Source: Halomonas alkalisoli (GTDB lineage: Bacteria > Pseudomonadota > Gammaproteobacteria > Pseudomonadales > Halomonadaceae). From it: a DNA stretch of 64,000 nt. Shown piece after piece: positions 34,491 through 49,880 of the stretch. Within the stretch, counting starts at the first letter, position 1, and every line of letters starts with the position of its first letter. A program made the translations under genes and the position numbers. Below the pieces are notes generated by a model. The model made no database searches, was not told the DNA's origin, and saw nothing but the letters and a program-made list of their open reading frames with translations. Where the stretch lies: NCBI RefSeq assembly GCF_021412585.1, contig NZ_JAKCMI010000012.1, forward strand, positions 62,001 to 126,000, given 5' to 3'.

Positions 34491-35300
34491 TCAGCCGCCG
34501 TGCTGCAGCTCGCCGAGAATCTGCGTCGCCAGGCTCTTCAGTCGTGGCCCCAGGTTCTCGACCAGGACCTGATGGCTGAGGCGATGCGAGGCGCCACCGC
34601 AGTTGACCGCCATGACTTCGGCGCCGTCCTCGAGGATCAGCGGTGTGGCCACGGCGCTGATCTGCGACTGCCAGTCACCTTCCGAGAGGCAGAAACCGTA
34701 GCGCTCGTAATCCTCCTGGCTACGCTTGATGCCGGCCTCCAGTGCCGGCCATTCGCTGCCATGTGCCTCGGCGAGTTCGGTCATCACGGCGTCGCGGCGG
34801 GCAGCGGGCAGGCCGCATAGCCAGGCACGACCGATCGCCGTCGTCGCCATGGGCAGTCGCGAACCCACATCGAGGCGCATGATCAGGGGGCCGCTGCCGT
34901 GGCAGCTTTCGATGTACATCATCGAGGTCTTGTCGGCGGCCCCCAGGCTGACATTGCAGTCGGTGGCTTCGGCCAGCTGCTGCATGAAGGGGCGGGCGAT
35001 CTCGCGAATGCCCTGGTTGGCCAGGAAACGGTATCCCAGGGCGAGGATGCCAGGCCCGAGCCGGTACTTCTCCAGCCGGGTGTTGTGCTTCAGGTAGCCG
35101 AGCTGCGTCAGCGTATAGGTCAGGCGCGAGACCGTGGGGCGCGGAATGCCGGTGCGGCTGGAGAGTTCGGCATTGCCCAGGTACTCCTCGCCGGCGCCGA
35201 AGGCACGCAGCAGTTCGAGGCCGCGAGCCAGGGCGGTGACGAAGTTGCGGTCCTTGGCCGGAGCGGCCTGGTCATCATCCAGAGGGGCTGGCTTGTTCAT
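34491..35300 (-). CDS. IclR-family regulator of the acyl-CoA cluster
   Basis: 269 residues from the ATG at 35300 (AGGGAA upstream). The N-terminal winged helix (NAELSSRTGIPRPTVSRLTYTL, about 42-63) is followed by an IclR effector domain (ATTAIGRAWL; YGFCLSEGDWQSQISAVATPL). It resembles PcaR/PobR-type regulators of aromatic and dicarboxylic acid pathways. It lies 98 bases after a thiolase gene on the same strand. Four matching IclR-type palindromes near three promoters of this cluster suggest it controls all of them. Confidence 0.9.
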   Translation of the reverse strand: MNKPAPLDDDQAAPAKDRNFVTALARGLELLRAFGAGEEYLGNAELSSRTGIPRPTVSRLTYTLTQLGYLKHNTRLEKYRLGPGILALGYRFLANQGIREIARPFMQQLAEATDCNVSLGAADKTSMMYIESCHGSGPLIMRLDVGSRLPMATTAIGRAWLCGLPAARRDAVMTELAEAHGSEWPALEAGIKRSQEDYERYGFCLSEGDWQSQISAVATPLILEDGAEVMAVNCGGASHRLSHQVLVENLGPRLKSLATQILGELQHGG

Positions 35301-35398
35301 GGGAGTTCCCTGTGGCGAGATGGTTGCGCGGAGTATCGCATATTGCCCCGGGAACGGTCCGTCGACGACGACAGGCCCGGGGCGTTGCCATGGCGGCC

Positions 35399-36607
35399 TC
35401 AGGCATCGAGGCGCTCGATAAGGGTCGCGATGCCCTGGCCGACGCCGATGCACATGGTGACGAGCGCATACCGCCCCCGTGTGGCCTCCAGTTGGCGCAG
35501 CGCGGTCAGCGCCAGGCGGGCGCCGGAGGCGCCGAGAGGGTGGCCGATGGCGATGGCGCCGCCGTTGGCATTCAGGCGGCTGTCGTCGGGGTCGAGGCCG
35601 AGCTGCTTGACGCAGCCCAGCACCTGAACGGCGAACGCCTCGTTGATCTCTATCACGTCCACCTGTTCGAGGGTCAGTCCGGCCCGTTCCAGTGCCTTGC
35701 GGCTCGCCGGTACCGGACCGAGCCCCATGACCCGGGGCGGTACCCCGGCCAGGGCGCTGGCGACGATCCGCGCCCGCGGGGCGACTCCCGCGCGCTCGCC
35801 GGCGGCCCGGCTGCCGACAATCAGCGCGGCGGCGCCGTCGTTGAGCCCGGAGGCGTTGCCGGCGGTGACCACGCCGCCGTCGAACAGCGGACCCAGCCTG
35901 CTCAGCTTGTCGGCGTCGGTACCCGGGCGCGGGTGCTCGTCCCTGTCGACCACTAGCGGGGGCTGCTTGCGGCCCTGAGGCACCTCGACGGCGAGCAGCT
36001 CGTCATCGTAGAAGCCGCGGGCGAGCGCCTCTGCGTAGCGTGCCTGGGAGCGGGCGGCGAAGGCGTCGCTCGCGTCACGGCCGATGTCGAGGTCGCGGGC
36101 CACGTTGTCGGCGGTCTCGGGCATGCTATGGCTGCCGAACTCGCGGGCGATCCAGGGATTGGGGAAGCGCGAACCGATTACTGTGTCGTACAGCGGCTGG
36201 TTGCGGGCGAAGGCCGACTCGGCCTTGCCAAGCACATAGGGCGCGCGGGACATCGACTCCACGCCACCGGCCAGGAAGAGCTCGCCTTCGCCGAGGCGAG
36301 TGGCCCGCGCTGCGTCGACCATGGCCGCCAGGCCGCTACCGCACAAGCGGTTGACCGTCTGGGCCGCCACCTCGACGGGCAGGCCGGCCAGCAGGCCCGC
36401 ATGGCGCGCCACGTTGCGGGAATCCTCGCCCGCCTGGTTGGTGCAGCCTGCCAGCACCTCCTCATAGGACGCCGGGGTGAAGTCGTTGCGTGCCACCAGG
36501 GCCTTGAGAACGTGCCCCAGCAGGTCGTCGGGTCGCATGCCGGCGAGTCCGCCACCGTGGCGGCCGAAGGGGGTCCGCAGCCCGTCGTAGATATAGGCGT
36601 CTTGCAT
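35399..36607 (-). CDS. Acetyl-CoA acyltransferase, 3-oxoadipyl-CoA thiolase type
   Basis: Thiolase that cleaves a 3-oxoacyl-CoA to acetyl-CoA and a shortened acyl-CoA. The 402 residues have nucleophile Cys89 (NRLCGSG), His356 (GHPLGASG) and Cys386 (MCIGVGQG). The length, IYDGLRTPFGRHGG near the start, and MGLGPVPASRKALERAG resemble PcaF/PaaJ/DcaF, which use dicarboxylic 3-oxoadipyl-CoA. It lies 22 bases after the hydroxyacyl-CoA dehydrogenase gene, in one operon. Substrate inferred. Confidence 0.92.
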   Translation of the reverse strand: MQDAYIYDGLRTPFGRHGGGLAGMRPDDLLGHVLKALVARNDFTPASYEEVLAGCTNQAGEDSRNVARHAGLLAGLPVEVAAQTVNRLCGSGLAAMVDAARATRLGEGELFLAGGVESMSRAPYVLGKAESAFARNQPLYDTVIGSRFPNPWIAREFGSHSMPETADNVARDLDIGRDASDAFAARSQARYAEALARGFYDDELLAVEVPQGRKQPPLVVDRDEHPRPGTDADKLSRLGPLFDGGVVTAGNASGLNDGAAALIVGSRAAGERAGVAPRARIVASALAGVPPRVMGLGPVPASRKALERAGLTLEQVDVIEINEAFAVQVLGCVKQLGLDPDDSRLNANGGAIAIGHPLGASGARLALTALRQLEATRGRYALVTMCIGVGQGIATLIERLDA

Positions 36608-36629
36608 GGAAATCGTCTCCGATTGGTGC

Positions 36630-38180
36630 TCAAGGGGTGGTCAGCGGTAGCCCCAGGGTGGCGCGGCGGCGCAACCATGGGCTGGCCCGGTAGCGGGGGT
36701 CGCCGGTGGCTGCGAGCAGGTTGTCGAGAATGGCGAGTATCCGGCGGCTGCCGTAGTGGTCGCCCATGGCCAGGGGGCCGCGGGGATAGCCCAGCCCGAG
36801 CTCCACGGCGCGGTCGATGGTATCCGGCTCGGCCACGCCCTGCTGGGCGATCTCGCTGCCCACGTTGACGATGCAGGCCACCACCCGCTGCAGCACGAAA
36901 CCGTTGCTGTCGTTGAAGGCGCTGACCGGTGTGCCGTCGTGGCCGAGCAGGGCCATGGCGGCGTTGCGGTAATCGGCAAGAGTGGCCGGGGTGGTCATCA
37001 GGCTGCGGCGCTTGTTTAGGCCGGCCAGCAGGTCCACGGCCACGCAGCGTTCCGCCGGCAGGCCCAGGCGCAGGGCGCAGCCGGTGGCATCTTCGCCCAG
37101 CGGTGCCACCAGGCAGAGCGCTTCCGGCGATGGCTCAGGGCCGCTCTCCAGCGTCCAGCCCGCACCGTGTACCAGTTCGGCGAGCTGTGCATGAGCCTCA
37201 TCAGCCTCGGCGCCGATCCATACCGGGCGCGGTGAGGCATCGGGCAGTGGCGGCTCATCGGGGACCTCCGGCCTGCCGTCGACGTAGCGGTAGAAGCCCT
37301 CGCCGCTCTTGCGACCCAGCAGGCCGGCGGTCAGCCGCTGGCGTGTCAGCGGCGAGGGACGGAAGCGCGGCTCCTCATAGTACTGATGGTAGATCGACTC
37401 CATTACCGCATGGGAGACATCCAGACCGGTCAGGTCGAGCAGGGTGAAGGGACCCATGCGAAAGCCACCCTGGTCGACCAGGATGCGATCGATGGTGGCA
37501 TGATCGGTCACGCTCTCGCCGAGGATGCGCAGCGCCTCGGTGCCGAAGGCGCGCCCGGCGTGGTTGACCAGGAAGCCCGGCGTGTCAGTGGCTCGCGCGG
37601 TGAAATGTCCCATGGCCTTGCCCAGCGCTTCGACCCTCTCGGTCACGTCGTCTGCCGTGCGCAGCCCAGGGATCACCTCGACGATCTTCATCAGCGGCAC
37701 GGGGTTGAAGAAGTGGAAGCCGATGACGCGCTGAGGTCGGCGGCAGGCCGAGGCAATGGCGGTCACCGAGAGCGATGAGGTATTGGTGGCCAGCACCGCC
37801 CGGTCGTCGAGGATCTCCTCGAGCTGCTGGAACAGGGTCTGTTTTGCCTCGAGCTGCTCGACGATGGCTTCGACGACGATATCGCACCCGGCCAGGTCGG
37901 CAAGGCTCGCGGCTTCCTTTAGGCTGGCGCGAAAGCGTTCGGCGTCGGTTTCGCTCAAGCGCTGCTTCTGTACACCTCGATCCCACAGGCCCCCGATGAA
38001 CTCACGCGCCTCGTCGATGGCGCCGTCGCGCAGGTCATGCAGGTACACGGTCAGTCCGGCCTGGGCGGCGATCTGGGCGATGCCGCGGCCCATGGCGCCG
38101 GTACCGACGATGCCCAGCGTCCGGTAGGGAGGGGGCGGTGTGTCCGCTTTCGGTATCTCCTTGGACATTCCTTTCGACAT
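36630..38180 (-). CDS. 3-hydroxyacyl-CoA dehydrogenase (PaaH/DcaH-like)
   Basis: NAD-dependent oxidation of a 3-hydroxyacyl-CoA. The ATG at 38180 gives 516 residues; AGAGGAC stands upstream. Rossmann motif GTGAMGRG (26-33), Asp49 at the end of strand 2, catalytic His in GFHFFNPVPLMKIVEV, then two tandem C-terminal dehydrogenase domains, as in PaaH/PaaC (about 500 residues). It supplies the activity that the hydratase of this cluster seems to have lost. An IclR-type palindrome lies 29 bases upstream of the start. Confidence 0.93.
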   Translation of the reverse strand: MSKGMSKEIPKADTPPPPYRTLGIVGTGAMGRGIAQIAAQAGLTVYLHDLRDGAIDEAREFIGGLWDRGVQKQRLSETDAERFRASLKEAASLADLAGCDIVVEAIVEQLEAKQTLFQQLEEILDDRAVLATNTSSLSVTAIASACRRPQRVIGFHFFNPVPLMKIVEVIPGLRTADDVTERVEALGKAMGHFTARATDTPGFLVNHAGRAFGTEALRILGESVTDHATIDRILVDQGGFRMGPFTLLDLTGLDVSHAVMESIYHQYYEEPRFRPSPLTRQRLTAGLLGRKSGEGFYRYVDGRPEVPDEPPLPDASPRPVWIGAEADEAHAQLAELVHGAGWTLESGPEPSPEALCLVAPLGEDATGCALRLGLPAERCVAVDLLAGLNKRRSLMTTPATLADYRNAAMALLGHDGTPVSAFNDSNGFVLQRVVACIVNVGSEIAQQGVAEPDTIDRAVELGLGYPRGPLAMGDHYGSRRILAILDNLLAATGDPRYRASPWLRRRATLGLPLTTP

Positions 38181-38209
38181 GGCATCGTCCTCTCGAATCG
38201 TGTTTGTTG

Positions 38210-38224
38210 TTTCGCTTTGCGGAA
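38210..38224. promoter_or_regulatory. IclR-type operator, site 1 (dehydrogenase-thiolase operon)
   Basis: TTTCGC-TTT-GCGGAA, arms matching at 5 of 6 positions, 29 bases upstream of the hydroxyacyl-CoA dehydrogenase ATG. It is preceded by TTGTTG, as is site 3, which stands at exactly the same distance from its gene. Confidence 0.6.
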
Positions 38225-38293
38225 TACTATTTCGTTTATTGACTGCCATCCTAGGCTATGCAAGAGTGCCTGACAACCAAGTGCGGTCTTTGA

Positions 38294-38308
38294 TTCTGCT
38301 TAGCGAAA
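38294..38308. promoter_or_regulatory. IclR-type operator, site 2 (acyl-CoA dehydrogenase operon)
   Basis: TTCTGC-TTA-GCGAAA, the same palindrome pattern, 74 bases upstream of the divergent acyl-CoA dehydrogenase ATG. With site 1 it brackets the 202-base divergent promoter region. Confidence 0.55.
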
Positions 38309-38382
38309 TAAGGACAGATGAGCCTGACGAATTCAAGGTATCTCGTCCAGACCAGCCGCCTTCTTCCTTATGAGGACATGTC

Positions 38383-39534
38383 ATGATTCGCGATACCGAA
38401 CTGCTCGATCAGCTGATCGATACCATTTCCCGCTTCGTACGCGAGCGCCTGATACCCAATGAGGCGCGGCTGGCAGAAGACGATGCCGTGCCGCCCGAGC
38501 TGCTCGAGGAGATGAAGGAGATGGGGCTGTTCGGCCTGTCGATCCCGGAGGAGTACGGCGGCCTGGGCCTGACCATGGAGGAGGAGGCGCTGGTGGCGAT
38601 GGAGATCGGCAAGACCTCGCCGGCCTTCCGCTCGGTATTCGGCACCAATAACGGCATCGGCGCCCAGGGCATCCTGATCGATGGCACACCGGAGCAGAAG
38701 GCGAAATACGTGCCTCGCCTGGCCACCGGTGAACTGCTCAGTTCCTTCTGCCTGACCGAGCCGGACTCCGGCTCCGACGCCGCCAGCCTGCGCACCACGG
38801 CGGTGCGTGACGGCGATCACTATGTGCTCAACGGCACCAAGCGCTACATCACCAACGGCCCCGAAGCCGACGTCTTCACCGTGATGGCGCGCACCGATCC
38901 CGCCAACAAGGGCGCGGGCGGAATCACCGCCTTCATCGTCGATGGCGACGCGCCGGGTCTCAAGCGCGGGCCGTCGGACAAGAAGATGGGCCAGAAGGGG
39001 GCCCACACCTGCGATATCATCTTCGAGGATTGCCGGGTGCCGGCCGAGAACATCATCGGTGGCGAGGAGGGCAAGGGCTTCAAGACCGCCATGAAGGTGC
39101 TCGATCGCGGCCGGCTGCATATCTCGGCGGTGTGCGTGGGCGTGGCCGAGCGTCTTGTCGAGGAGTCGCTCAATTACGCTATCGAACGCAAGCAGTTTGG
39201 CGTGCCGCTGGCCGAGCACCAGCTGATTCAGGCGATGCTCGCCGACAGCAAGACAGAAGCCTATGCCGGTCGCAGCATGGTGCTCGACGCCGCGCGACGC
39301 AAGGATGCCGGTGAGAAGGTGTCGACGCTGGCGTCCTGCTGCAAGCTGTTCTGCGCCGAGATGGTGGGGCGCGTCGCCGACCGGGCGGTGCAGGTCCACG
39401 GCGGTGCCGGCTACATGGCCGAGTATGCGGTGGAGCGCTTCTACCGCGACGTGCGCCTGTTCCGCATCTACGAGGGCACGACCCAGATTCAGCAAGTGGT
39501 GATCGCGCGCAACATGGTGCGGGAGGCGAGCTGA
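38383..39534 (+). CDS. Acyl-CoA dehydrogenase (DcaA-like)
   Basis: FAD enzyme that makes the 2,3-double bond in an acyl-CoA. The 383 residues keep CLTEPDSGSDAASL (FAD/substrate loop), VHGGAGYMAEY and catalytic Glu364 in RIYEGTTQIQ. The whole sequence resembles the adipate-type DcaA of Acinetobacter (IPEEYGGLGLTMEEE; FGTNNGIGAQGI). Start MIRDTELLDQL. It overlaps the ligase gene in TGATG, so the three plus-strand genes form one operon. Confidence 0.92.
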   Translation: MIRDTELLDQLIDTISRFVRERLIPNEARLAEDDAVPPELLEEMKEMGLFGLSIPEEYGGLGLTMEEEALVAMEIGKTSPAFRSVFGTNNGIGAQGILIDGTPEQKAKYVPRLATGELLSSFCLTEPDSGSDAASLRTTAVRDGDHYVLNGTKRYITNGPEADVFTVMARTDPANKGAGGITAFIVDGDAPGLKRGPSDKKMGQKGAHTCDIIFEDCRVPAENIIGGEEGKGFKTAMKVLDRGRLHISAVCVGVAERLVEESLNYAIERKQFGVPLAEHQLIQAMLADSKTEAYAGRSMVLDAARRKDAGEKVSTLASCCKLFCAEMVGRVADRAVQVHGGAGYMAEYAVERFYRDVRLFRIYEGTTQIQQVVIARNMVREAS

Positions 39535-41159
39535 TGGCTCTCCGACGTGAGCCGAAGGCTCTCTCGGTATCCCGCCGGGCACCCGACGAGGCGATCTTCG
39601 GCCGCCTGGCAAGCGACCTGGTGGCCGAGCTGCCCGAGCGCCTGAGTACTCGGGTATTGGAAAACGCCGAGCGGCTTGCCGATGAGCCGGCGCTGGTCGA
39701 CGGCGAGGTGCGCTGGAGCTACGCCGAGCTGGGCCGCGAGATTCGAGCCGCCGCCGAGTGGCTCGATTCGCTGGGCGTTCGACCGGGCGATCGCATCATG
39801 ACGGTGAGCGAGAACTGCCGGGCGCTGGTGGTGCTGCTGCTGGCGGCCAGCGAGCGGGATGTCTGGGTGGCCATCGTCAATTCGCGCCTCTCGGGCCAGG
39901 AAATCGACGCGATCCGCGACAACTGCCAGCCGCGCCGGGTGTTCTACACCAGCGAGGCCTCGCCGGAAGCCGAGGCCCACGGCGTTCGGCATGGCGCCGA
40001 GGCCTGTGAACACCCCAGCCTGGGTCGGCTGATGCGCACGCCCCAGGCCGATGTCGAGCCGGAGCCTGTCGCAGCCGGCGGTGCCGACCAGGTCGCGGCG
40101 ATGATCTACACCTCGGGCACCACCGGCACGCCCAAGGGGGTGATGCTGACCCACCGGGGCATCCTGTTCATTGCCACGCTCTCGGGGGGCATGCGTCACC
40201 TCAGCCAGGGCGAGCGCGTCTATGGCGTGCTGCCGATGTCCCACGTGTTCGGTCTTTCATCGGTCTGCATGGGGTCGCTCTACAACGGCGCCTGTCTCTA
40301 TACCGTGCCACGCTTCGATGCCGCGTCCATGCTGGCGGCACTGGTGCATGAGCGCATCACCGTACTGCAGGGCGTACCGGCCATGTTCGCGCGTACGCTG
40401 GAGTTTCTGCGTCGCGAAGGGCGGCCGCTGGAGGCGCCGGCCTTACGCTACATCTCCGCCGGCGGCTCCCCGCTTGATGGCGACCTCAAGGGGCGGGTCC
40501 AGGCACTGTTTGGCTTGACGCTGCACAACGGCTACGGCCTCACCGAAGCGAGCCCGACCATCAGCCAGACCCGCATCGACGATCGCTTCGGCAACAATAC
40601 CGTGGGCCGGGTGCTGCCGCTGCTGGAGTATCGCCTGGAGCCGCTGGGCGAGGGCGGCGAGGATGAGCCCGATCACGCAGGCGCAGGCGAGCTATGGGTG
40701 CGCGGCCCCAATGTGATGAAGGGCTATTTTCGCCAGCCCGCTGCCACGCGTGCGTGCCTCACCGACGACGGCTGGCTCAATACCGGCGACATCGCCCGCT
40801 TCGACGAGGACGACCAGCTCTACATCGTCGGTCGCAGCAAGGAGCTGATCATTCGCTCCGGTTTCAACATCTACCCGCCCGACGTGGAGGCGGTGATCAA
40901 CGAACACCCTGACGTGACCCTGTCGGCGGTGGTCGGGCTCCCGGTCGAAGGCAACGAGGAGGTGGTCGCCTTCGTCCAGTGCGAGCCCGGCGCCATGCTC
41001 AGCGAGGCCGAGCTGCGCGACTTCATCGGCCCGCGGCTGGCGCCCTACAAGCGGCCGACTCGCCTGATCCTGCTGGATGCCTTGCCGGCCACCGCCAGTG
41101 GCAAGATCCTCAAGGGACGCTTGCGTGACATGGCCGGAAGGGAGGACCCTCCCGAGTGA
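39534..41159 (+). CDS. AMP-forming acyl-CoA ligase
   Basis: Activates a free acid to its CoA thioester with ATP. The 541 residues carry YTSGTTGTPKGVMLTH, GYGLTEASP, the hinge GRSKELIIRSGFNIYP and the catalytic C-terminal Lys in TASGKILKGRLRD. It looks like the medium/aryl-CoA ligase branch (long-chain-type FadD or PimA-like). The ATG overlaps the dehydrogenase stop by one base. Probably the entry enzyme of the pathway; substrate unknown. Confidence 0.92.
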   Translation: MALRREPKALSVSRRAPDEAIFGRLASDLVAELPERLSTRVLENAERLADEPALVDGEVRWSYAELGREIRAAAEWLDSLGVRPGDRIMTVSENCRALVVLLLAASERDVWVAIVNSRLSGQEIDAIRDNCQPRRVFYTSEASPEAEAHGVRHGAEACEHPSLGRLMRTPQADVEPEPVAAGGADQVAAMIYTSGTTGTPKGVMLTHRGILFIATLSGGMRHLSQGERVYGVLPMSHVFGLSSVCMGSLYNGACLYTVPRFDAASMLAALVHERITVLQGVPAMFARTLEFLRREGRPLEAPALRYISAGGSPLDGDLKGRVQALFGLTLHNGYGLTEASPTISQTRIDDRFGNNTVGRVLPLLEYRLEPLGEGGEDEPDHAGAGELWVRGPNVMKGYFRQPAATRACLTDDGWLNTGDIARFDEDDQLYIVGRSKELIIRSGFNIYPPDVEAVINEHPDVTLSAVVGLPVEGNEEVVAFVQCEPGAMLSEAELRDFIGPRLAPYKRPTRLILLDALPATASGKILKGRLRDMAGREDPPE

Positions 41160-42544
41160 GGCCGGCGCGTCTGCGCGCCGGCCTGCTGGTCGTCGTCACG
41201 CTGGCCACCCTGTGTCACCTCGTCTTCGTCAGCACGACCCTTCAGGCTATCGGCGTCTTGGCCCTGGCTGGCTATCTGGCCACGCTGCGTGGCAGCCTCT
41301 CGCCCATGGCGCGGGGGTTGCTGCTCGCAGCCGGCATCTTGACCCTGATGGCGCTATGGCGTGCCGAGGCGCCCGGCCGGCTGCTGTTCGAGGCGGCCGG
41401 GCGCTTCGCCTTCTTCGCCACCTTCGTCGTCGCGCTCAGTCTGTTGCGCCTGCCGGCCTACCGGTCGCGGCTGGTGCGCCGCTGCGGCGAGGCAATGCTG
41501 CTGCAGCCACCCGGGCGCCGCTATCCCATTCTTTCCGCCGGTTCCGCGCTGTTCGGCATCATCCTCAACATCGGCGTGCTCAACCTCTTTGCCGGCATGA
41601 TCGAGAAGAGCAACACCCTGGCGGCGGCCCAGGGGCGTGCCTGGGTACGGCAGGCGCGCCAGCGGCGGATGATGCTCGCGCTGCTGCGGGGCTTTTCATT
41701 GGCGCCGCTGATTTCCCCCATGGGGATCGGGGTGGCGGTCGTACTCTCGAACCTGCACGAGCTGCGCTGGATCGACCTGGCGCCCTACGTGATCGGCGCG
41801 GCGCTGCTCATCTTCCTGGTGGGCTGGGCCGTAGACCACCTGACAGGCCCGCATCCAGCCGCCGGTGGCGCCAGGCACCCGGCGCCTTCGCTGGCACCCC
41901 TGGGACAGTTCTGCCTGCTGCTGCTGAGTATCGTCTCGCTGGTGTTCCTGCTCTCCTGGGTGCTCGAGGTGCGGCTGCCCATCGCTGCCCTGGTCGGGGC
42001 GCCGCTGGGTGCGCTTGGTTGGCTTGCCTGGCAGCGGCGTCGGCTCGGCCTGCTGGGTGTGCCGGCGGCGCTGGCCAGCCTGCGGCGACAGCTGCCGTGG
42101 CTTGTGGCGCCCATCGGCAATGAAGTGGTGGTGCTTGGGGCGGCGGGATACCTCGGCCACCTCTGCGTGGCGCTGGTGCCGGTGGATAGCCTGGGACCGC
42201 TGCTGGTCGTCATCGAGCCGCTGGGAGCGGGCAATGCGGTGCTGGCAATGCTGGCAGTGGTGGGGCTGGCTCAGGTCGGGGTCAATCCCATCGTGACCGT
42301 GACCCTGCTCGTCGGCCTGCTGCCCTCGCTGCCCATCGAGGGGTTGACCCCGGCGCTGGTCGGCGCCTCGCTGATGGTGGGCTGGGCGCTGGCGCTGATG
42401 TCCTCGCCGATGACCGCATCGATGCTGATCCTGTCGCGTTTCACCGGCGTGGCGTCGACCCGCATTGGCTACCGCTGGAACGCACGCTTCCTTGTCGCCG
42501 CGATTCCGCTGCTCTCCGGCTGGTTCCTGTTCGTCTCCTGGTGA
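41156..42544 (+). CDS. Polytopic membrane protein of unknown function
   Basis: 462 residues, about 10-12 hydrophobic segments, GTG start overlapping the ligase stop (GTGA). I do not recognise the family. The pattern (a pair of hydrophobic halves joined by a basic loop RRLGLLG; PLISPMGIGVAVVLSN in one half, LMSSPMTASMLILSRFTG in the other) suggests two related halves, as in anion or dicarboxylate transporter folds. Tight translational coupling to a CoA ligase suggests import or export of the pathway substrate. No signal peptide, no ATPase motif. Confidence 0.7.
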   Translation: MRPARLRAGLLVVVTLATLCHLVFVSTTLQAIGVLALAGYLATLRGSLSPMARGLLLAAGILTLMALWRAEAPGRLLFEAAGRFAFFATFVVALSLLRLPAYRSRLVRRCGEAMLLQPPGRRYPILSAGSALFGIILNIGVLNLFAGMIEKSNTLAAAQGRAWVRQARQRRMMLALLRGFSLAPLISPMGIGVAVVLSNLHELRWIDLAPYVIGAALLIFLVGWAVDHLTGPHPAAGGARHPAPSLAPLGQFCLLLLSIVSLVFLLSWVLEVRLPIAALVGAPLGALGWLAWQRRRLGLLGVPAALASLRRQLPWLVAPIGNEVVVLGAAGYLGHLCVALVPVDSLGPLLVVIEPLGAGNAVLAMLAVVGLAQVGVNPIVTVTLLVGLLPSLPIEGLTPALVGASLMVGWALALMSSPMTASMLILSRFTGVASTRIGYRWNARFLVAAIPLLSGWFLFVSW

Positions 42545-42578
42545 CCTGGCTGAGGTGTTGCCGAGCTGTTTCCGAAGC

Positions 42579-43682
42579 TCAGGCGGCGCTTAGCCCCTCG
42601 CTGACGAACTCCAGGTGATGGTCGACGTCACCCAGATGGTGATCGAACATCACCAGGTGTCTGGCGTAGTGGGAGATTCGACACTCTTCGGTCATGCCCA
42701 TGGCGCCGTGGAGCTGGATGGCCTGCTCGGCGACGAAGCGGGCCGCTTCCCCGCAGTAGGCCTTGGCTGCGGCAACGCGGTAGTCGCGCTCGTCACTGGG
42801 GCGCTCGAGGCTGGCGGCGGCGAGGATCGCCATGGACCGAGCCTGCTCCAGGTTCAGGTGCATGTCGACCATGCGATGCTGCAGCACCTGGAAGCTTGCC
42901 AGCGGGGTGCCGAACTGCCGGCGCTCCTTGAGGTAGGCCAGCGTCTGGTCGCAGGCGGCCTCCATGGCGCCCACCGCTTCGGCGCAGAGCGCGGCGCGCC
43001 CCAACGCCAATACCTCCGCCAGGGCTTCGGCGGCGTCTTCACCAAGGCGGGCGTCGTGGGGTAGGGCCACGCCCTTCAGTTGCACGTCGCTGGCGATCTG
43101 GTCGTCCAGTGTCGGATAGTCGCGTCGCTCGAGTCCCGGGCTGTCGGCAGGCACCAGGAAGACGCCGAGCGTGCCGTCGTCGACCCGGGCGCTAACCAGC
43201 AGTGCCGTGGCCGAAGGGGCCGCTATCACGACCTGCTTGGCACCCTCGATGATCCAGCCGTCCGCCTGTCGGCGGGCGCACGTGGCGATGGCGTGGGCAT
43301 CGTAGCGGGCGGCGGTCTCCTGCCAGGCCAGGGCCAGTCGCAGCTCGCCTTCCAGCAACGGGGCCAGCCAGCGCTCACGCTGGGGCGCATCAGCCAGCCG
43401 GGCCAGCAGGGTGCCTGGCAGCAGCAGGCCGGCCAGGTAGGGCTCGCGCACCAGGCCACGGCCAAGCGCCTGCATCACGATCATCACGTCGATGCCGTCA
43501 CCGCCCAGGCCACCGGCCTCCTCGGTAAACGGTAGTTGCAGCAGCCCCAGTTCGGCGAAGGTGCCCCACAGGGGAGAGGGCTCCCCGTGCAGGGCGTCAG
43601 TCTCGGTTGGCGCCTGGTCGGCGACCAGGCGCTCCAGGGTATCGGCGAGCATGCGCTGCTCGTCGCTGTATGCGAAGTTCAT
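42579..43682 (-). CDS. Acyl-CoA dehydrogenase, small-subunit type (PimD-like)
   Basis: 367 residues with the three-domain dehydrogenase fold (AYSDEQRMLADTLERLV at the start; LAYLKERRQFGTPLASFQVLQH). The C-terminus (QLHGAMGMTEECRISHY) has no YEGT-type catalytic glutamate. It starts 9 bases after its partner gene. Paired large and small dehydrogenase genes like this are known from pimeloyl-CoA dehydrogenase (PimC-PimD) and form mixed complexes. Last in the minus-strand operon. Confidence 0.88.
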   Translation of the reverse strand: MNFAYSDEQRMLADTLERLVADQAPTETDALHGEPSPLWGTFAELGLLQLPFTEEAGGLGGDGIDVMIVMQALGRGLVREPYLAGLLLPGTLLARLADAPQRERWLAPLLEGELRLALAWQETAARYDAHAIATCARRQADGWIIEGAKQVVIAAPSATALLVSARVDDGTLGVFLVPADSPGLERRDYPTLDDQIASDVQLKGVALPHDARLGEDAAEALAEVLALGRAALCAEAVGAMEAACDQTLAYLKERRQFGTPLASFQVLQHRMVDMHLNLEQARSMAILAAASLERPSDERDYRVAAAKAYCGEAARFVAEQAIQLHGAMGMTEECRISHYARHLVMFDHHLGDVDHHLEFVSEGLSAA

Positions 43683-43691
43683 GTCAGTTCC

Positions 43692-44885
43692 TTACATGCC
43701 GAGTAGGGTCTTGGCGACGATGCTCTTCTGGATCTCGTTGCTGCCGCCGTAGATCGAGAGCTTGCGTCGATTGAAATACTGCGCGCCCAGGGCGGCATGC
43801 TCGGCTTCTTCGCGCTCCAGCTCCTGGTCGCCGTAGAGATGGTCGGGGAAGAAGGGCAGCGCCTGAGGGCCCAGGGCGCGCCGGGTCAGCTCACTGAGCT
43901 CCTGGCGCAGCTCCGAACCGCGGACCTTGAGCAGCGAGCTTTCGGCACCCGGCGCCCCGCCGTCGCGGGCGGCGGCGAGCACGCGAAGGTGGGTGACCTC
44001 CAGTGCCATCAGTTCGATCTCCGCCTTGACCACGCGCTGACGAAAGTGTGGCTGCTCGAGCAGCGGGCGGCCGCGATGCTGGATCTCCAAGGCCACCGAC
44101 TTGAGGTGGCGCAGGGCCTGCTTGGCGTGGCCAAGCCCGGCGATGCCGGTGCGCTCATGGGTAAGCAGGAACTTGGCGCAGGTCCAGCCCTGGCCCTCTT
44201 CCCCTATACGGTTGGCGACCGGGACGCGCACCTCATCGAGGAACACCTCGTTGACCTCATGGGCGCCATCGAGGGTAATGATCGGGCGAACGCTGATGCC
44301 GGGAGTTTCCATGTCGATCAACAGGAAGCTGATACCGGCCTGCTTCTTGGCCTCGGGATCGGTGCGTACCAGGCAGAACATCATGTTGGCGTGCTGGCCC
44401 AGGGTGGTCCAGCTCTTCTGGCCGGTGACGACATACTCATCGCCGTCACGCACGGCGCGAGTGCGCAGGCTGGCCAGGTCTGAGCCGGCGCCGGGTTCGG
44501 AGTAGCCCTGGCACCACCAATCCTGGTTGGAGAGGATGCGCGGCACATAGTGGCGTTTCTGCGTCTCGCTGCCGAACTTCATGATCACCGGGGCGACCAT
44601 GCTGACGCCGAAGGGCACGATGGTCGGGGCGTGGGCCGCGGCACACTCCTCTTCGAAGATGTGCCGTTCCACCGGGCCCCAGCCCGGGCCGCCATGCTCT
44701 TGCGGCCAGTTGACGCCAAGCCAGCCGCGTACACTGAGACTATCCTGCCAGCGCAGGTGATCGTCGGCGGAGAGGCGCCGCCCCAGGCGGACGCGCTCCC
44801 GGATGTCGTCGGGCAAACCGGTAGCCAGGAAGTCGCGCACTTCCCGGCGAAACGCCTGCTCCTCGGCGGTGAATTCGAGGTTCAT
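43692..44885 (-). CDS. Acyl-CoA dehydrogenase, large-subunit type (PimC-like)
   Basis: 397 residues. FAD-side motifs are strong (GYSEPGAGSDLASL; WTTLGQHANMMF; RTDPEAKKQAGISFLLID), and the C-terminus reads IYGGSNEIQKSI, where the usual catalytic Glu of IYEGT is Gly. The base may sit elsewhere, as in isovaleryl-CoA dehydrogenase. The start overlaps the hydratase stop by one base. Resembles PimC, the pimeloyl-CoA dehydrogenase large chain. Confidence 0.9.
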   Translation of the reverse strand: MNLEFTAEEQAFRREVRDFLATGLPDDIRERVRLGRRLSADDHLRWQDSLSVRGWLGVNWPQEHGGPGWGPVERHIFEEECAAAHAPTIVPFGVSMVAPVIMKFGSETQKRHYVPRILSNQDWWCQGYSEPGAGSDLASLRTRAVRDGDEYVVTGQKSWTTLGQHANMMFCLVRTDPEAKKQAGISFLLIDMETPGISVRPIITLDGAHEVNEVFLDEVRVPVANRIGEEGQGWTCAKFLLTHERTGIAGLGHAKQALRHLKSVALEIQHRGRPLLEQPHFRQRVVKAEIELMALEVTHLRVLAAARDGGAPGAESSLLKVRGSELRQELSELTRRALGPQALPFFPDHLYGDQELEREEAEHAALGAQYFNRRKLSIYGGSNEIQKSIVAKTLLGM

Positions 44886-46309
44886 CAGGCGTCTCCTCCG
44901 GCGGTGTGGCAGGCCTGTCGGTGGGGGCCGCCCAGGTGGCGCGGATAGCCCAGGTCCTCGATGGCGAGCAGGTCGATATCGCTATCGCGATAGGCCCAGC
45001 CACGCTCCGCCAGCATCAGGCTGGCCGCTTCCATGGCCGCCTGGGGGTTGGCGGCATCGCCGTGCGCGGCCTTTGCCAGCGTCGCCAGCAGGCTGCCCTG
45101 GCGGCTTGCCACGATGGCAAGGCGCAGCGCCTTGAGTGCATTGGCCACGGCTTGCTGCTGCCCGGCGTCGGCACGCAGGGTGACCAGCTCCGCCATGTTG
45201 CCCTCTTCAGGAACGACCAACGCCAGGTCAGCGTCGATGGCGTCAAGGGCTTCGGCTTCGGCCGGGGATAGCAGTGCGATGTGCAGGCAGGGCGCGGGGC
45301 AGGGCGTGGCGCTGCCCGGAGCGGCCAGGCAGGCCTGGGCATTGGCGTCGGGATTGTCGCTTAGATCGATGCCGGCGCGCTCGGCCTTGCCCTTGAGCTG
45401 CGCGAACAGTGGATGCTCGCCGAGCAAGGCGAGTCGTGTCAGGGCCGGTGCATCGCTGGCGTCGGGCACCTTGTGCGGCGCGCGAGCGGCAAAGAAGGCG
45501 TGGATCAGCCCGGCGCGCTGGGGCGAATCCATGCAGGCGAGGAACAGTTCGCGCTCCCGGCGCAGGCCCTCGGCCAGGCTGCCTTCGCTGCTGGCGGCGA
45601 TCGCCTCGATGCAGCGGAACGGTGAATAAAGCTCGGGTACCTCTTGTTCGAGCCTGGCACGATAACGCTCGATGGCCACTGGATCGGCCGCGGGGGGTGG
45701 CAGCTCGCCGGTTACCCGCGGCGAGCGCTTGCCGGCCAGCACGTCTCGCGCCGCTGCCAGGCCGGCTTCGAGAGGGTCGTTGGTGTCCGCCAAGGCATCG
45801 ACGATACCGAGTTCTAGCGCCTCGTCCGCGGCTGCGAAACGTCCGCTGGTGATCAGGTCGAGCGCCGCCGCGATGCCGGCCAGGCGTGGCAGCCGCTGGG
45901 TGCCACCGGCGCCCGGCAGCAGCCCGAGCTTGACCTCGGGCAGACCCACCCGGGTGCCGGGCAGGGCGACCCGAAGCTGGCAGCCCAGAGCGACTTCGAG
46001 CCCGCCACCGAGGGCCGTGCCGTGCAGGACGGCGACGATGGGCTTGGCGCTGGCCTCCTGATGCCTGATCACGTCCGGCAGGATCGGCGCCTGGGGCGGC
46101 TTGCCGAACTCGCGAATATCGGCACCGGCGATGAAGGTCCTGCCGCGAGCGACCAGCACCAGGACGCGAGCTTCGGGGTCTTCGTTGCCCTGTGCAATGG
46201 CCTCCACCAGGCCTTGGCGTACGGCCTGGCCCAGGGCGTTGACCGGCGGGTTGTCGATGACGATCACGCCGATATCGTCATGGCGCTGGTATGTGACCGG
46301 AGTCGTCAT
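44885..46309 (-). CDS. Enoyl-CoA hydratase with degenerate C-terminal dehydrogenase remnant
   Basis: 474 residues. Residues 1-200 are a complete crotonase: oxyanion loop AGAD (61-64), GGGLEVAL with Glu105, and [14 protein letters not shown] with Glu125. After the linker (HAFFAAR), where bifunctional FadJ/PimF-type proteins begin their NAD domain with GxGxxG, this protein has [12 protein letters not shown]. The end ([23 protein letters not shown]) still matches the C-terminus of the dehydrogenase part. About 200 residues of that part are missing, so hydration only is expected; the separate dehydrogenase gene can replace the lost half. Confidence 0.85.
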
Positions 46310-46364
46310 GGGGTGGAGCTCCCAGTATCTGGAGTGGAGGAGAACGAGTCATGCAAACGGTAGC

Positions 46365-48389
46365 TCATGAGTCCGTGGGCGGCGTCAGCGTCGCCGCCTG
46401 TGGCCGGGCCCGGCGCTGGCTCCAGCGCGCCAGCAGTACGGCAGGGACCAGGGCGGCAAGGGCGTAGGCGAACAGCTCGACCTGGCTGAGCGGCACCATG
46501 CCGCCACCGGGCAAGGCGAACAGCAGACCGGCCACCAGCACCAGGCCGCGGACAAGCGTCTCGCAAACGGCACCGACACCGAGTCGCCCGACACCGATCA
46601 GATACCCCTGCATGGCGGAGGCAAACAGCACGATGCCCACCAGCGCCTGTACGAAGACCAGGCCGATCTGGAGCGGCTCGCCCTGCATGATCAGCGCCGG
46701 GTTGAGCACGAACAGGAAAGGAATGAAGTAGATCACGCTACCCAGTCGCATGGCCTGCAGGCCGGTGGCCATGGGGCGCGCGCCGGCCACGGTAGCGGCG
46801 GCAAAGGCGCCCAGGGCCACCGGTGGGGTGATGAAGCTGAGCATGCCCCAATAGAGGATGAACATGTGCACCGCCATGGGGTCGAGCCCGCCGCCCTGGA
46901 TCAACGCCGGGGCCAGTGCCACCGCGAGGAAGATGTAGGCGGCGGTGACGGTCATGCCGATGCCGAGCACGAAGCTGGTCAGCGCACCCATGAGCAGCAG
47001 CAGCGGCACGCTGCCACCGGCGATATGGATGAAGTCGTTGGCGATGGTGCCGGAGAGGCCGGTCATCGACAGGGCGCCGACCAGCATGCCGACGCCGGCC
47101 AGGATGGCGATCAGCTCGGCGAACAGCTTGGCCGCCGAGGAGAGCGACTCGCCCAGCTCGCGCAGCCCCCAGCGGTTGCGGCGCGAGAACTGGTTGAGCA
47201 CCAGCAGCAGGGCGGTGGCATAGAAGGGAGCCACGGCTTCGCGCTGCATCACCAACAGCATCCATACCAGCAGTGCGAAGACGAAGATGAAGTACCACCC
47301 CTCCTTCAGCGTCTGCAACAGTGAGGGCAATTCAGCGGCGGGAAGCCCCTTGATATCGTGGCGCGCGGCGTAGGCATCGATCTGGATGAACAGCCCCAGG
47401 AAATAGAGAATCGAGGGAATGACCGCGGCCAGGGCGACGGCCGCATAGGGCACGTCGAGGAACATCGCCATGACGAAGGCGGTGGCGCCCATCACCGGGG
47501 GCATCAGCACCCCGCCGGTGGAGGCGCAGGCTTCCACGCCGCCGGAAAAAGAGCGGCCCATGCCGATACGACGCATGGCGGGAATCGACAGCACGCCGGT
47601 GGTCAGCACGTTGCTGATCACGCTGCCGCTCATCGAGCCCATCAGGCCGCTGGAGAAGATCGAGACCTTGGCCGGCCCACCGCGGACGTGGCCGAGCAGG
47701 GCGAAGGCCAGGTTGATGAAGAACTTGCCACCACCGCTCTTCTGCAGCACCACGCCGAACACCAGGAAGCCGATGACCAGGCCGGCGAAGGCCTGCAGCG
47801 GCACGCCCATGATGCTCTCGGTGCTCATGGTGTGGTACATGGCGGTCTCCTCCAGGGTGGAGGGGAACGCCTGGATCGGCCCGGGCACGATATCCGCGAC
47901 CAAAGGGTAGAGAGAGAACAGCGACACGATGACGGCGATGGGCCAGCCGCCGGCGCGCCGGGCTGCCTCCACGATCAGAAGCCACCAGGCATAGCTGGCC
48001 AGGATGGCGATATCGGGGGCGGCAAAGGCCCAGCCGCGCTCGAGAATCGACTCGGCGTTGTAGACGAAGTAGCCGCCGACAATCAGCGTCGCCAGGCACA
48101 GCGCGTAGTCGTACCAGGGCACCGGGCGGTGTTGCAGGGACGACTTGATCGGCCACAGCAGATAGACCAGCGGCAGCAGCAGGGCCACCACGGCATAGTA
48201 GAACTGGGTCTCCAACCCGGTGATGAAGCGCAGCCAACCCGTGTTGAAGAGGTAATCCAGGGTCATCAACATCAGCAGGACTGTCACTGCGCCGGGAATC
48301 CAGCGCAATGCAGGGGGAAGCGGACGAACGTGGGTGACCTTTTCCTTGAGCTCGCGCGTCGAATCGGCAGGGGGAGTGGGGTTGGTCAT
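46365..48389 (-). CDS. TAXI-type TRAP transporter fused permease (4TM/12TM)
   Basis: 674 residues from the ATG at 48389. About 16 hydrophobic segments join the DctQ-like and DctM-like parts in one chain, the usual form in TAXI systems. Motifs include GSMSGSVISNVLTTGVLSIP and ASTGGVLMPPVMGATAFVMA. A TTG 33 bases upstream is possible but less likely. It follows the TAXI receptor by 66 bases, and the hydratase gene starts 55 bases after it. Imports the compound degraded by the cluster (inferred). Confidence 0.92.
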   Translation of the reverse strand: MTNPTPPADSTRELKEKVTHVRPLPPALRWIPGAVTVLLMLMTLDYLFNTGWLRFITGLETQFYYAVVALLLPLVYLLWPIKSSLQHRPVPWYDYALCLATLIVGGYFVYNAESILERGWAFAAPDIAILASYAWWLLIVEAARRAGGWPIAVIVSLFSLYPLVADIVPGPIQAFPSTLEETAMYHTMSTESIMGVPLQAFAGLVIGFLVFGVVLQKSGGGKFFINLAFALLGHVRGGPAKVSIFSSGLMGSMSGSVISNVLTTGVLSIPAMRRIGMGRSFSGGVEACASTGGVLMPPVMGATAFVMAMFLDVPYAAVALAAVIPSILYFLGLFIQIDAYAARHDIKGLPAAELPSLLQTLKEGWYFIFVFALLVWMLLVMQREAVAPFYATALLLVLNQFSRRNRWGLRELGESLSSAAKLFAELIAILAGVGMLVGALSMTGLSGTIANDFIHIAGGSVPLLLLMGALTSFVLGIGMTVTAAYIFLAVALAPALIQGGGLDPMAVHMFILYWGMLSFITPPVALGAFAAATVAGARPMATGLQAMRLGSVIYFIPFLFVLNPALIMQGEPLQIGLVFVQALVGIVLFASAMQGYLIGVGRLGVGAVCETLVRGLVLVAGLLFALPGGGMVPLSQVELFAYALAALVPAVLLARWSQRRARPQAATLTPPTDS

Positions 48390-48455
48390 GGTGGCGTCCG
48401 TGAATCGGGGAAGGGGCGGCAAGGCCGCCCCAGGTTCAGGCTGAGAGGGCGCGGC

Positions 48456-49616
48456 TTATTCGAACACCGGTTCGAGACCGGCGTCGCTGAGTGCCTCGGC
48501 GCGCGCCTGCATCCAGGCATCACGGAACTCATCCTCGTCTTCAGGTGCGTCGGCAATGAAGTCGCTCCAGGTGGCGACGAGCAGCTCCTGGCGCTCCACC
48601 AGCCCCTTCTGGTGCGCCTGCATCTCGTCGGTCCAGACGCCAATCTCCTCGTAGTACTCGACGACCGCATCGTGGAACGGTATGACCCACTGCAGATCCT
48701 GGTACTCGAAGGCGTAGCCCACGGCGCCGGGTGCGGCATCCTTGTAGTCGTCGTAGTTTTCCTGCAACGCCTTGATCAGGCCATAGGCCACCTTGTCGTC
48801 GAGGTCCTGATTGCCGACCACGATCGGATAGGGATAGCTGGCGCTGGGCACGGGGTTGTCGGCGCTGATGTCACCCGCGCCGGCTGTCACCTCATGGGGG
48901 CGGAAGTACGGCGCCACGGCCATCATGCGCTCCCAGCCCTCGGCATTGTCGGGGTCCAATACCGGCCAGCTGATGCCTCGAGGACTGCTTGCAAGCTGCT
49001 GCGCTGGCGGAGTCACGGTGGTGGTGAAGGAGGCATCGGCGTTGCCGGCAATGATGCCGTCGAAGGAGCGGGCATAGCCGGGAAAGTCGATGCGCTCCAC
49101 GTCGTCCCAGGTCAATCCACCGAAGGCAAGGTAGGCTTCGGTGCCCTTGTTCAGGGCATCGTCCCCGCGAATATAGGCGATACGCTTGCCGGCCAGGTCA
49201 GCCGGCGTCACGACGTCGAGATCCCCGGCGACCGCCAGTGACAGGCCGAACGAAGCCGTAGAAGTGGTAATCACTCGGATGGGCTGGGGGCCCCAGTCGC
49301 GGTGAGCGAACATCATGACCCCTTCGGCACCGTAATAGCTGGCGATCCCGCAGGCGCAGAGGTCGACGCGGCCCTGCTTGAGCGGCGTCATCCGCGAGAC
49401 ATCGTTGTCGCCAGGCAGGATACGCACCGAGGTGCCGTAGGTATTCTGCAGCATGTTGCCGATGGCCACGGCCTGGGCGTAGCCGCTTGAATTCGTGCCG
49501 TAGGCGGTCCAGGCCATGGTGCGCGGGAGCTCGACCTCGCTTGCCTGGGCCACGCCGGCGGAGAGCAGCGAGAGCGGCAGGGCGGCGAGAATGAGTGAGC
49601 GGGAGAACTGGCGCAT
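48456..49616 (-). CDS. TAXI-family TRAP solute receptor
   Basis: Periplasmic binding protein for the fused permease. The ATG at 49616 (AGGAGT upstream) gives 386 residues with a signal peptide (MRQFSRSLILAALPLSLLSA, cut after AQA). TAXI features are the GTNSSGYAQAVAIGNML segment and the AGKRIAYIRGDD loop. First gene of an operon that continues through permease, hydratase and the PimC/PimD pair. Two IclR-type palindromes lie upstream. Confidence 0.92.
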   Translation of the reverse strand: MRQFSRSLILAALPLSLLSAGVAQASEVELPRTMAWTAYGTNSSGYAQAVAIGNMLQNTYGTSVRILPGDNDVSRMTPLKQGRVDLCACGIASYYGAEGVMMFAHRDWGPQPIRVITTSTASFGLSLAVAGDLDVVTPADLAGKRIAYIRGDDALNKGTEAYLAFGGLTWDDVERIDFPGYARSFDGIIAGNADASFTTTVTPPAQQLASSPRGISWPVLDPDNAEGWERMMAVAPYFRPHEVTAGAGDISADNPVPSASYPYPIVVGNQDLDDKVAYGLIKALQENYDDYKDAAPGAVGYAFEYQDLQWVIPFHDAVVEYYEEIGVWTDEMQAHQKGLVERQELLVATWSDFIADAPEDEDEFRDAWMQARAEALSDAGLEPVFE

Positions 49617-49645
49617 GGAACGACTCCTGTACAAAGCGATTGTTG

Positions 49646-49660
49646 TTTTGCTGTGCGGTA
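49646..49660. promoter_or_regulatory. IclR-type operator, site 3 (TAXI operon, proximal)
   Basis: TTTTGC-TGT-GCGGTA, 29 bases upstream of the TAXI receptor ATG. The surrounding 24 bases match the region of site 1 at 19 positions, and the distance to the start codon is identical. Confidence 0.55.
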
Positions 49661-49742
49661 TTTGATTCCGAAACTGCACTCGATACTAGGAAGGCGACGA
49701 GTCGGTGTCAACGCATGCTTGTCCCTGTCGCGAGGCTTGCTC

Positions 49743-49757
49743 GTCCGCTTGGCGGAA
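49743..49757. promoter_or_regulatory. IclR-type operator, site 4 (TAXI operon, distal)
   Basis: GTCCGC-TTG-GCGGAA, with a perfect TCCGC-N3-GCGGA core, 126 bases upstream of the TAXI receptor. It lies in the 264-base gap before the SulP gene, which otherwise holds no recognisable gene. Confidence 0.5.
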
Positions 49758-49880
49758 CACAGGTGTCAACTGATTGATAAGTCGCTGGAAGAGGGGGAGA
49801 GGCGGAAGCTGCGGCGAATGCCAAAAAGCGAAACATGCGACCAAGGTATAGGCTTTTCTGGCGCAAGGAGAGGTGGTGCG

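What the first reader, a model, noticed from the sequence alone, without database searches (positions are those of the whole stretch)
34491..49757. One IclR-type operator repeated at three promoters of a dicarboxylate-like beta-oxidation cluster
Four palindromes share the pattern TTyyGC-N3-GCGrAA: TTTCGC-TTT-GCGGAA (38210), TTCTGC-TTA-GCGAAA (38294), TTTTGC-TGT-GCGGTA (49646) and GTCCGC-TTG-GCGGAA (49743). They sit before the dehydrogenase-thiolase, acyl-CoA dehydrogenase-ligase-membrane protein, and TAXI-hydratase-PimCD units. Sites 1 and 3 lie exactly 29 bases before their start codons and share 19 of 24 flanking bases. An IclR gene lies inside the cluster. This ties ten catabolic and transport genes into one probable regulon for import, activation and beta-oxidation of an unidentified acid.
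Basis: partly seen in the sequence, partly recalled or inferred. Interest (0 to 1): 0.75.

Follow-up and report, generated by a model that had tools for sequence, protein, structure and literature searches.

The report
Three-box IclR operators control acid-burning genes
In a Halomonas-type bacterium the same short DNA element sits just past three predicted promoters of a gene cluster predicted to break down an organic acid, and because the element is kept in all 36 related genome stretches examined and lies near 16 of 24 more distant relatives of the cluster's IclR-type regulator gene, it is likely the switch on which that regulator acts, probably as a repressor.

Summary
The four sites are real and exceed chance. 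Two exact 12/12 copies lie 84 bp apart in one divergent promoter (0.03 expected in 64 kb), and the pair recurs in 37 of 37 Halomonadaceae loci. The unit is larger than reported: a three-box operator, RYGRAA-N5-TTYYGC-N3-GCRRAA, mostly 11-15 bases past a predicted -10, a repressor's position. Site 4 has only two boxes. In relatives a further operator precedes etfBA: present in 28 of 30 loci with etfB, 0 of 7 without, the window included. Near 24 more distant, reciprocal-best IclR relatives (one in the same family) there are 24 exact sites in 432 kb against 1.2 expected, in 16 of 24 loci, often before pim-like beta-oxidation genes. Best reading: the IclR represses import, activation and beta-oxidation of a probable medium-chain dicarboxylate. 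Binding, repression and substrate are untested. Genome-wide counts of the pattern do not exceed reversed-pattern controls. The operator class is known (PMC8222616), so this is a new member of a known kind.

The parts
34491..35300 (-). iclR: IclR-family regulator, 269 aa from the ATG at 35300 (start chosen by eye); last gene of the had-thl-iclR unit
   Evidence: HTH_IclR and IclR_C above Pfam cut-offs; PcaR/PcaU/PobR model 140 bits, below its cut-off; recognition helix 99.8% conserved over 38 orthologues
35399..36607 (-). thl: thiolase, 3-oxoadipyl-CoA thiolase type
   Evidence: NF006001 655 bits, cut-off 622; beta-ketoadipyl-CoA thiolase structures 6pca-6pcd among the five best sequence matches
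36630..38180 (-). had: 3-hydroxyacyl-CoA dehydrogenase
   Evidence: NF006124 679 bits, cut-off 508
38210..38235 (-). operator 1, three-box: ACGAAA-TAGTA-TTCCGC-AAA-GCGAAA in the sense of had
   Evidence: 0 mismatches to RYGRAA-N5-TTYYGC-N3-GCRRAA; third box at least 5/6 in 37 of 37 loci
38248..38276 (-). predicted had promoter TTGTCA-17-TAGGAT
   Evidence: only promoter-like hit in 38150-38400 on either strand; 17-bp spacer and 9 of 12 in 37 of 37 loci
38239..38267 (+). predicted acd promoter TTGACT-17-AAGAGT, weak (8 of 12)
   Evidence: best call in the 60 bases upstream of the operator; not found by the stricter scan; sequence block conserved
38283..38308 (+). operator 2: GCGGTC-TTTGA-TTCTGC-TTA-GCGAAA; core exact, third box weak
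   Evidence: 2 mismatches; a core of at least 10 of 12 in 37 of 37 loci, 82-85 or 94-95 bp from operator 1
38383..39534 (+). acd: acyl-CoA dehydrogenase
   Evidence: Pfam Acyl-CoA_dh domains
39534..41159 (+). lig: AMP-forming acyl-CoA ligase
   Evidence: AMP-binding and AMP-binding_C
41156..42544 (+). mem: membrane protein with ion-transporter-superfamily fold (predicted)
42579..43682 (-). pimD-like small acyl-CoA dehydrogenase subunit
   Evidence: TIGR03203 322 bits, below cut-off 652.7
43692..44885 (-). pimC-like large acyl-CoA dehydrogenase subunit
   Evidence: TIGR03204 463 bits, below cut-off 623.85
44885..46309 (-). ech: enoyl-CoA hydratase, 474 aa, C-terminal part unmatched in Pfam
   Evidence: ECH_1 residues 11-180
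46365..48422 (-). taxiP: fused TRAP permease
   Evidence: TIGR02123 580 bits, cut-off 320.65
48456..49616 (-). taxiS: TAXI-type solute-binding protein
   Evidence: weak matches to TAXI binding-protein structures 9ibo and 8s4j, E about 8e-7
49646..49671 (-). operator 3, three-box: TCGGAA-TCAAA-TACCGC-ACA-GCAAAA in the sense of taxiS
   Evidence: 2 mismatches; third box at least 5/6 in 10 of 10 loci
49683..49711 (-). predicted taxiS promoter TTGACA-17-TAGTAT
   Evidence: only promoter-like hit in 49600-49900 on either strand;
49743..49757 (.). site 4: two-box palindrome 97 bp upstream of operator 3, without a third box
   Evidence: present in 8 of the 10 loci that have taxiS above 80% and operator 3

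Best explanation
The repeated element is a conserved three-box operator (RYGRAA-N5-TTYYGC-N3-GCRRAA) that is likely bound by the cluster's own IclR-family protein, which is predicted to repress the cluster by sitting just downstream of the predicted -10 elements until an acid or its degradation product releases it. Shown here: the element, its conservation, its joint absence with etfBA, and its enrichment near reciprocal-best IclR relatives in the phylum. Inferred: binding by this IclR; repression, from the operator's position at roughly +5 to +31; negative autoregulation, because iclR is the last gene of the had-thl-iclR unit; and a medium-chain dicarboxylate as the acid, from the pim-like genes, the 3-oxoadipyl-CoA-type thiolase and two predicted carboxylate-type transporters.
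For: Two exact sites in one promoter against 0.03 expected in 64 kb. Pair present in 37 of 37 loci, spaced 82-85 bp in 32 and 94-95 bp in 4; the remaining locus, L029, is 84 once an overlapping 10/12 match is set aside. Third box of at least 5/6 at exactly -11: had 37/37, etfBA 26/28, TAXI 10/10, acd 16/37. Gap from -10 to operator: 12 in 34/37 (had), 13-15 in 33/37 (acd), 11-12 in 14/28 (etfBA), 11-12 in 8/10 (TAXI). 28 of 30 loci with etfB beside mem have the etf operator, 0 of 7 without etfB. In rearranged loci L016, L017, L040 and G007 a site lies before ech. Seven zero-mismatch three-box hits in six cluster-bearing genomes, each within about 3.5 kb of the membrane protein gene; none in three genomes of the same genus without it. 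IclR recognition helix 99.8% conserved against 78% for residues 111 to the end. More distant loci: 24 exact sites in 432 kb against 1.2 expected, 16 of 24 loci, 20 of 24 sites within 400 bp upstream of a homologue's start, 24 of 24 IclR reciprocal best; without the one same-family locus (L194) it is 21 sites in 15 of 23 loci.
Against: No binding or expression data. Genome-wide, the pattern is not over-represented: strict 15-mer 4+2 matches against 6+7 in the control, one-mismatch 94 against 83 per strand, three-box with two mismatches 8 against 10 in the window genome and 91 against 78 over nine genomes. 8 of 24 distant IclR loci have no exact site, including L156 and L188-L190, whose IclR is among the most similar (53-57%); three of the eight (L189, L191, L198) have an 11/12 site within about 170 bp upstream of iclR. 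L207's exact site is 7 kb from iclR and may be chance. L009 and L011 keep etfB without the operator. Operator 2's third box is weak in most loci and site 4 has none. The third box is not always on the upstream side: it lies on the gene side at the ech sites of L016, L017, L040 and G007 and of L195-L197 and L204. One search looked for promoters only in the 60 bases upstream of each operator, so the downstream position is independently supported only for had and taxiS in the window; the acd call is poor (8 of 12) and the etfBA calls scatter. Many of the 37 loci are close relatives and not independent.
Confidence: 0.74

Rival explanations
1. The IclR binds these operators but acts as a ligand-dependent activator or dual regulator, as PcaU and PobR do (recalled), or loops the two operators of the divergent promoter.
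For: Operators 1 and 2 lie about 8 (82-85 bp) or about 9 (94-95 bp) helical turns apart at 10.5 bp per turn; operator 1 also lies on the upstream side of the predicted acd promoter; the family holds repressors, activators and dual regulators (PMC8222616 section 4).
Against: For had and taxiS an unrestricted scan of the window regions puts the operator downstream of the -10, and the gap is nearly constant over loci. Only two spacing classes exist, so the phase argument is weak.
Confidence: 0.16
2. The operators belong to another transcription factor, and the IclR is only a neighbour.
For: Binding was not tested; some close IclR relatives (L156, L188-L190) have no exact site in the stretch examined.
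Against: The two-box core fits the WTT-11-AAW IclR consensus of PMC8222616 and the third box its three-box class. Exact sites recur near reciprocal-best IclR relatives in 16 of 24 more distant loci. L031 and L032, which lack iclR beside thl, still have the orthologue.
Confidence: 0.08
3. Chance palindromes, or repeats kept for another reason such as RNA hairpins.
For: A terminator-like stem is called at 38208-38226; genome-wide counts do not exceed controls.
Against: Placement, conservation and enrichment figures; the third box lies outside the hairpin, and in operator 1 it is the called T-rich tail.
Confidence: 0.02

Closest known systems
Three-box IclR operators of Suvorova and Gelfand 2021 (PMC8222616), with PcaU, PobR and HmgR as tested cases cited there
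   Same: Three half-sites of alternating direction, one pair fitting the group 1 consensus (WTTYCRYW3RYGRAAW) and one pair resembling group 2; position close before genes
   Different: Halomonas has no occurrence in the main text; its supplementary tables could not be read here, so whether this regulog is listed there is unknown
pimFABCDE operon of Rhodopseudomonas palustris (Harrison and Harwood 2005, not read; described in passages of PMC3223731 and, as accompanied by an IclR-type gene, of PMC2864759)
   Same: Ligase, thiolase, PimC-like and PimD-like dehydrogenases, hydratase, hydroxyacyl-CoA dehydrogenase, nearby IclR; distant loci L200-L203 have a pim-like gene order with an operator in the iclR/ech divergent promoter
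   Different: Here three separate units, hydratase and hydroxyacyl-CoA dehydrogenase in separate units, an added single acyl-CoA dehydrogenase, TAXI-TRAP and a second transporter instead of an ABC transporter, and etfBA in most relatives; pimC/pimD model cut-offs not reached
PcaR/PcaU/PobR subfamily (TIGR02431)
   Same: Closest NCBIfam model to the regulator (140 bits); acids as effectors in that subfamily (recalled)
   Different: Well below the curated cut-off of 284.75
DASS/VcINDY and TRAP-M transporters (for the membrane protein)
   Different: 9-14% identity in the best eleven rows; no Pfam or NCBIfam match; substrate unknown

Membership tests
IclR family | IclR HTH domain and IclR C-terminal effector domain | tested here: met
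   PF09339 59 bits (cut-off 22), PF01614 67 bits (cut-off 24)
PcaR/PcaU/PobR subfamily | TIGR02431 score at or above 284.75 | tested here: not met
   140.2 bits
IclR three-box operator class (PMC8222616) | Group 1 palindrome with odd spacing (WTTYCRYW3RYGRAAW) | tested here: met
   TTYYGC-N3-GCRRAA core; consensus read
IclR three-box operator class (PMC8222616) | Third box of alternating direction at a fixed distance | tested here: met
   -11 in had 37/37, etfBA 26/28, TAXI 10/10, acd 16/37; absent at site 4
IclR three-box operator class (PMC8222616) | Binding by the IclR protein | not testable with these tools
   Needs gel shift or footprint; indirect support
pim dicarboxylate pathway | PimC and PimD equivalog scores | tested here: not met
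   462.7 against 623.85 and 322.1 against 652.7
pim dicarboxylate pathway | Growth on or induction by C7-C14 dicarboxylates | not testable with these tools
   Experiment needed
3-oxoadipyl-CoA thiolase (PRK08131) | NF006001 score at or above 622 | tested here: met
   655 bits
Ion transporter superfamily (membrane protein) | Fold shared with DASS, ArsB and TRAP-M chains | tested here: met

The most novel reading that the evidence does not exclude
This IclR and its three-box operator define a phylum-wide switch for pim-type (medium-chain dicarboxylate) beta-oxidation, which in Halomonadaceae captured a dedicated electron transfer flavoprotein and two transporters, so that the pathway is controlled from import to electron disposal by one operator, gained and lost with each module.
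Probability: 0.52. Interest if true: 0.58.

Novelty: new member of a known kind. Interest (0 to 1): 0.45.

Why it matters
If true, it gives an unstudied IclR a defined operator, a regulon and a short list of candidate effectors. It ties an unnamed membrane protein family (named 'hypothetical' where a source names it, or 'H+/gluconate symporter' in 2 of 120 listed relatives) to carboxylate catabolism. It shows an operator present and absent together with an etfBA module. It also offers a candidate dicarboxylate sensor part for Halomonas, which is used in industry (recalled), and three-box sites on which to test alternative IclR dimerization.

Tried and rejected
Genome-wide patterns do not stand out from reversed-pattern controls: strict 15-mer 4+2 against 6+7, one mismatch 94 against 83 per strand, three-box with two mismatches 8 against 10 in the window genome. 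So no regulon members outside the cluster are claimed. The two strict hits elsewhere in the genome were read and lie inside open frames. The idea that the iclR was lost in L031 and L032 was dropped: both genomes have it, L032's on what looks like the same contig (same length), L031's on another contig. The idea that contig ends downstream of the membrane protein mark rRNA operons was dropped: the gene there is etfB, of which genomes hold several similar copies. Fold matches not listed for the membrane protein are not taken as excluded. Literature: seven searches listed no paper on this regulon;'s 29 papers 20 were listed. The library lacks most subscription papers, and the supplements of PMC8222616 were not readable. 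Papers seen: PMC8222616 abstract, passages and sections 4 and 12; PMC12543098, PMC3223731 and PMC2864759 passages only; Harrison and Harwood 2005 and Popp 2002 not read. Not done: structure of the IclR, effector docking, a tree of the regulator.

Full report
What was checked. The four sites are at the stated coordinates. Two match TTYYGC-N3-GCRRAA exactly (38210, 38294) and two have one mismatch (49646, 49743). The window has 2 exact matches against 0.03 expected from a first-order Markov model, and 9 matches of 11 or more of 12 letters against 1.67 expected. The 29-base distances are right. The '19 of 24 flanking bases' is 14 of 24 for true flanks, and up to 20 of 24 for a span that includes the site.

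Conservation. A search with the membrane protein gave 36 loci, in Billgrantia, Halomonas, Vreelandella, Franzmannia, Salinicola and Modicisalibacter records. The window and all 36 have two sites of at least 10 of 12 in the had/acd promoter. The spacing is 82-85 bp in 33 loci (L029 counted after setting one overlapping match aside) and 94-95 bp in four (L030, L035-L037), about 8 and 9 helical turns. Only two classes exist, so the phase is suggestive at best. Many loci are close relatives; the 37 are not 37 independent events.

The unit is a three-box operator. Aligned in the sense of the regulated gene, a third half-site lies at exactly -11 from the palindrome: at least 5 of 6 letters in 37 of 37 had sites, 26 of 28 etfBA sites, 10 of 10 TAXI sites and 16 of 37 acd sites; site 4 has none (0 of 8). 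The boxes alternate in direction. This fits the three-box class predicted for 32 orthologous groups of IclR proteins and cited as known for PcaU, PobR and HmgR in PMC8222616 (abstract, passages, sections 4 and 12 read). The side of the third box is not universal: at the ech sites of L016, L017, L040 and G007 and of L195-L197 and L204 it lies on the gene side.

Where it sits. In the window the only promoter-like hits of an unrestricted scan are TTGTCA-17-TAGGAT for had and TTGACA-17-TAGTAT for taxiS. Over the loci, in the 60 bases upstream of each operator, the best promoter ends 12 bases before the third box in 34 of 37 had promoters, 13-15 in 33 of 37 acd promoters, 11-12 in 14 of 28 etfBA promoters and 11-12 in 8 of 10 TAXI promoters. 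That search could not have found a promoter elsewhere, and the acd calls are weak (8 of 12). The position would put the operator at about +5 to +31, where a bound protein blocks the polymerase. Hence repression is inferred; it is not shown.

A further operator, and its absence. In most relatives another operator lies 26-300 bp past the membrane protein gene, before etfB and etfA. Of 30 loci with etfB there, 28 have the operator and two (L009, L011) do not; of 7 without etfB, the window included, none has it. The window genome's three partial etfB genes lie at ends of other contigs, and no operator was called in the 4.5-6 kb read around each. In L031, L032 and G007 a further acyl-CoA dehydrogenase gene lies between operator and etfB. 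In rearranged loci (L016, L017, L040, G007) a site lies before ech. Zero-mismatch three-box sites were found 7 times in six cluster-bearing genomes, always beside the cluster, and not in three genomes of the same genus without the membrane protein. With two mismatches the nine genomes give 91 hits against 78 in the control.

The link to the IclR. Over 38 orthologues the recognition helix is 99.8% conserved, against 78% for residues 111 to the end. All ten relatives searched, including the two that lack the gene beside thl, have the orthologue at 68-77% identity. Searches of 274 class-level and 398 phylum-level genomes gave more IclR relatives, in 4 and 33 genomes besides the window's (G174 in both); 24 loci were fetched, one of them (L194) from the same family. 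All 24 are reciprocal best with the window IclR among the six IclR-like genes found in the window genome. They hold 24 exact 12/12 sites in 432,123 bases against 1.2 expected; 16 of 24 loci have at least one, or 21 sites in 15 of 23 loci without L194. 20 of the 24 sites lie within 400 bp upstream of a homologue's start, and 15 have a third box of 5 or 6 letters on one side or the other. In L200-L203 the genes run in a pim-like order with the operator in the iclR/ech divergent promoter. Against this: 8 of 24 loci have no exact site, and L156 and L188-L190 are among the closest by regulator identity; three of the eight (L189, L191, L198) have an 11/12 site within about 170 bp upstream of iclR. 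L207's site is 7 kb from its iclR.

What acid. The pimFABCDE operon of R. palustris is described as serving medium-chain dicarboxylates, and as induced by C7-C14 dicarboxylates and a C8 fatty acid (PMC3223731, passages), and as accompanied by an IclR-type gene (PMC2864759, passage). A PimCD-like pair has dicarboxylate phenotypes in beta-proteobacteria (PMC12543098, passage). With the 3-oxoadipyl-CoA-type thiolase and two carboxylate-type transporters, a medium-chain dicarboxylate is the best guess for the window cluster; a fatty acid is not excluded. This is homology, not a test.

Verdict. The operator class is known, so this is a new member of a known kind. Whether this regulog is already in the supplementary tables of PMC8222616 could not be checked.

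Noticed in passing
G007 (loci L139, L141-L144), G032 (L145-L147), window genome contigs C6, C7, C15: etfB exists in several similar copies per genome (G007: five, 91-97% DNA identity among themselves, 80-93% to copies in other genomes; window fragments 92-96% alike), and in 12 of 36 loci the contig ends inside etfB. Recent duplication or gene conversion are both possible.
   Followed up: partly
L008 and L020, acd promoter: A second copy of the 15-mer lies 15 bp after operator 2, a tandem duplication.
   Followed up: no
window 57550-57564: TTTCGCCATGCATAA scores next after the four sites in a matrix built from them; its surroundings were not examined.
   Followed up: no
window 44885-46309: The hydratase is 474 aa but its Pfam match ends near residue 186; the C-terminal part is unassigned.
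   Followed up: no
L040 (Halomonas sulfidaeris record): Several cluster genes are split into separate matches (thl, acd, mem, etfB, etfA, pimC, pimD, TAXI genes), suggesting sequencing errors or decay.
   Followed up: no
L137 (G059:C33) and L138 (G058:C210): A more distant TAXI transporter (39-50% identity) lies between iclR and thl in L032's genome, and its binding-protein gene lies near iclR in L031's.
   Followed up: no
L141 (G007:C1:586000-600000): A second pimC/pimD-like cluster with its own etfBA and had, without a called operator.
   Followed up: no
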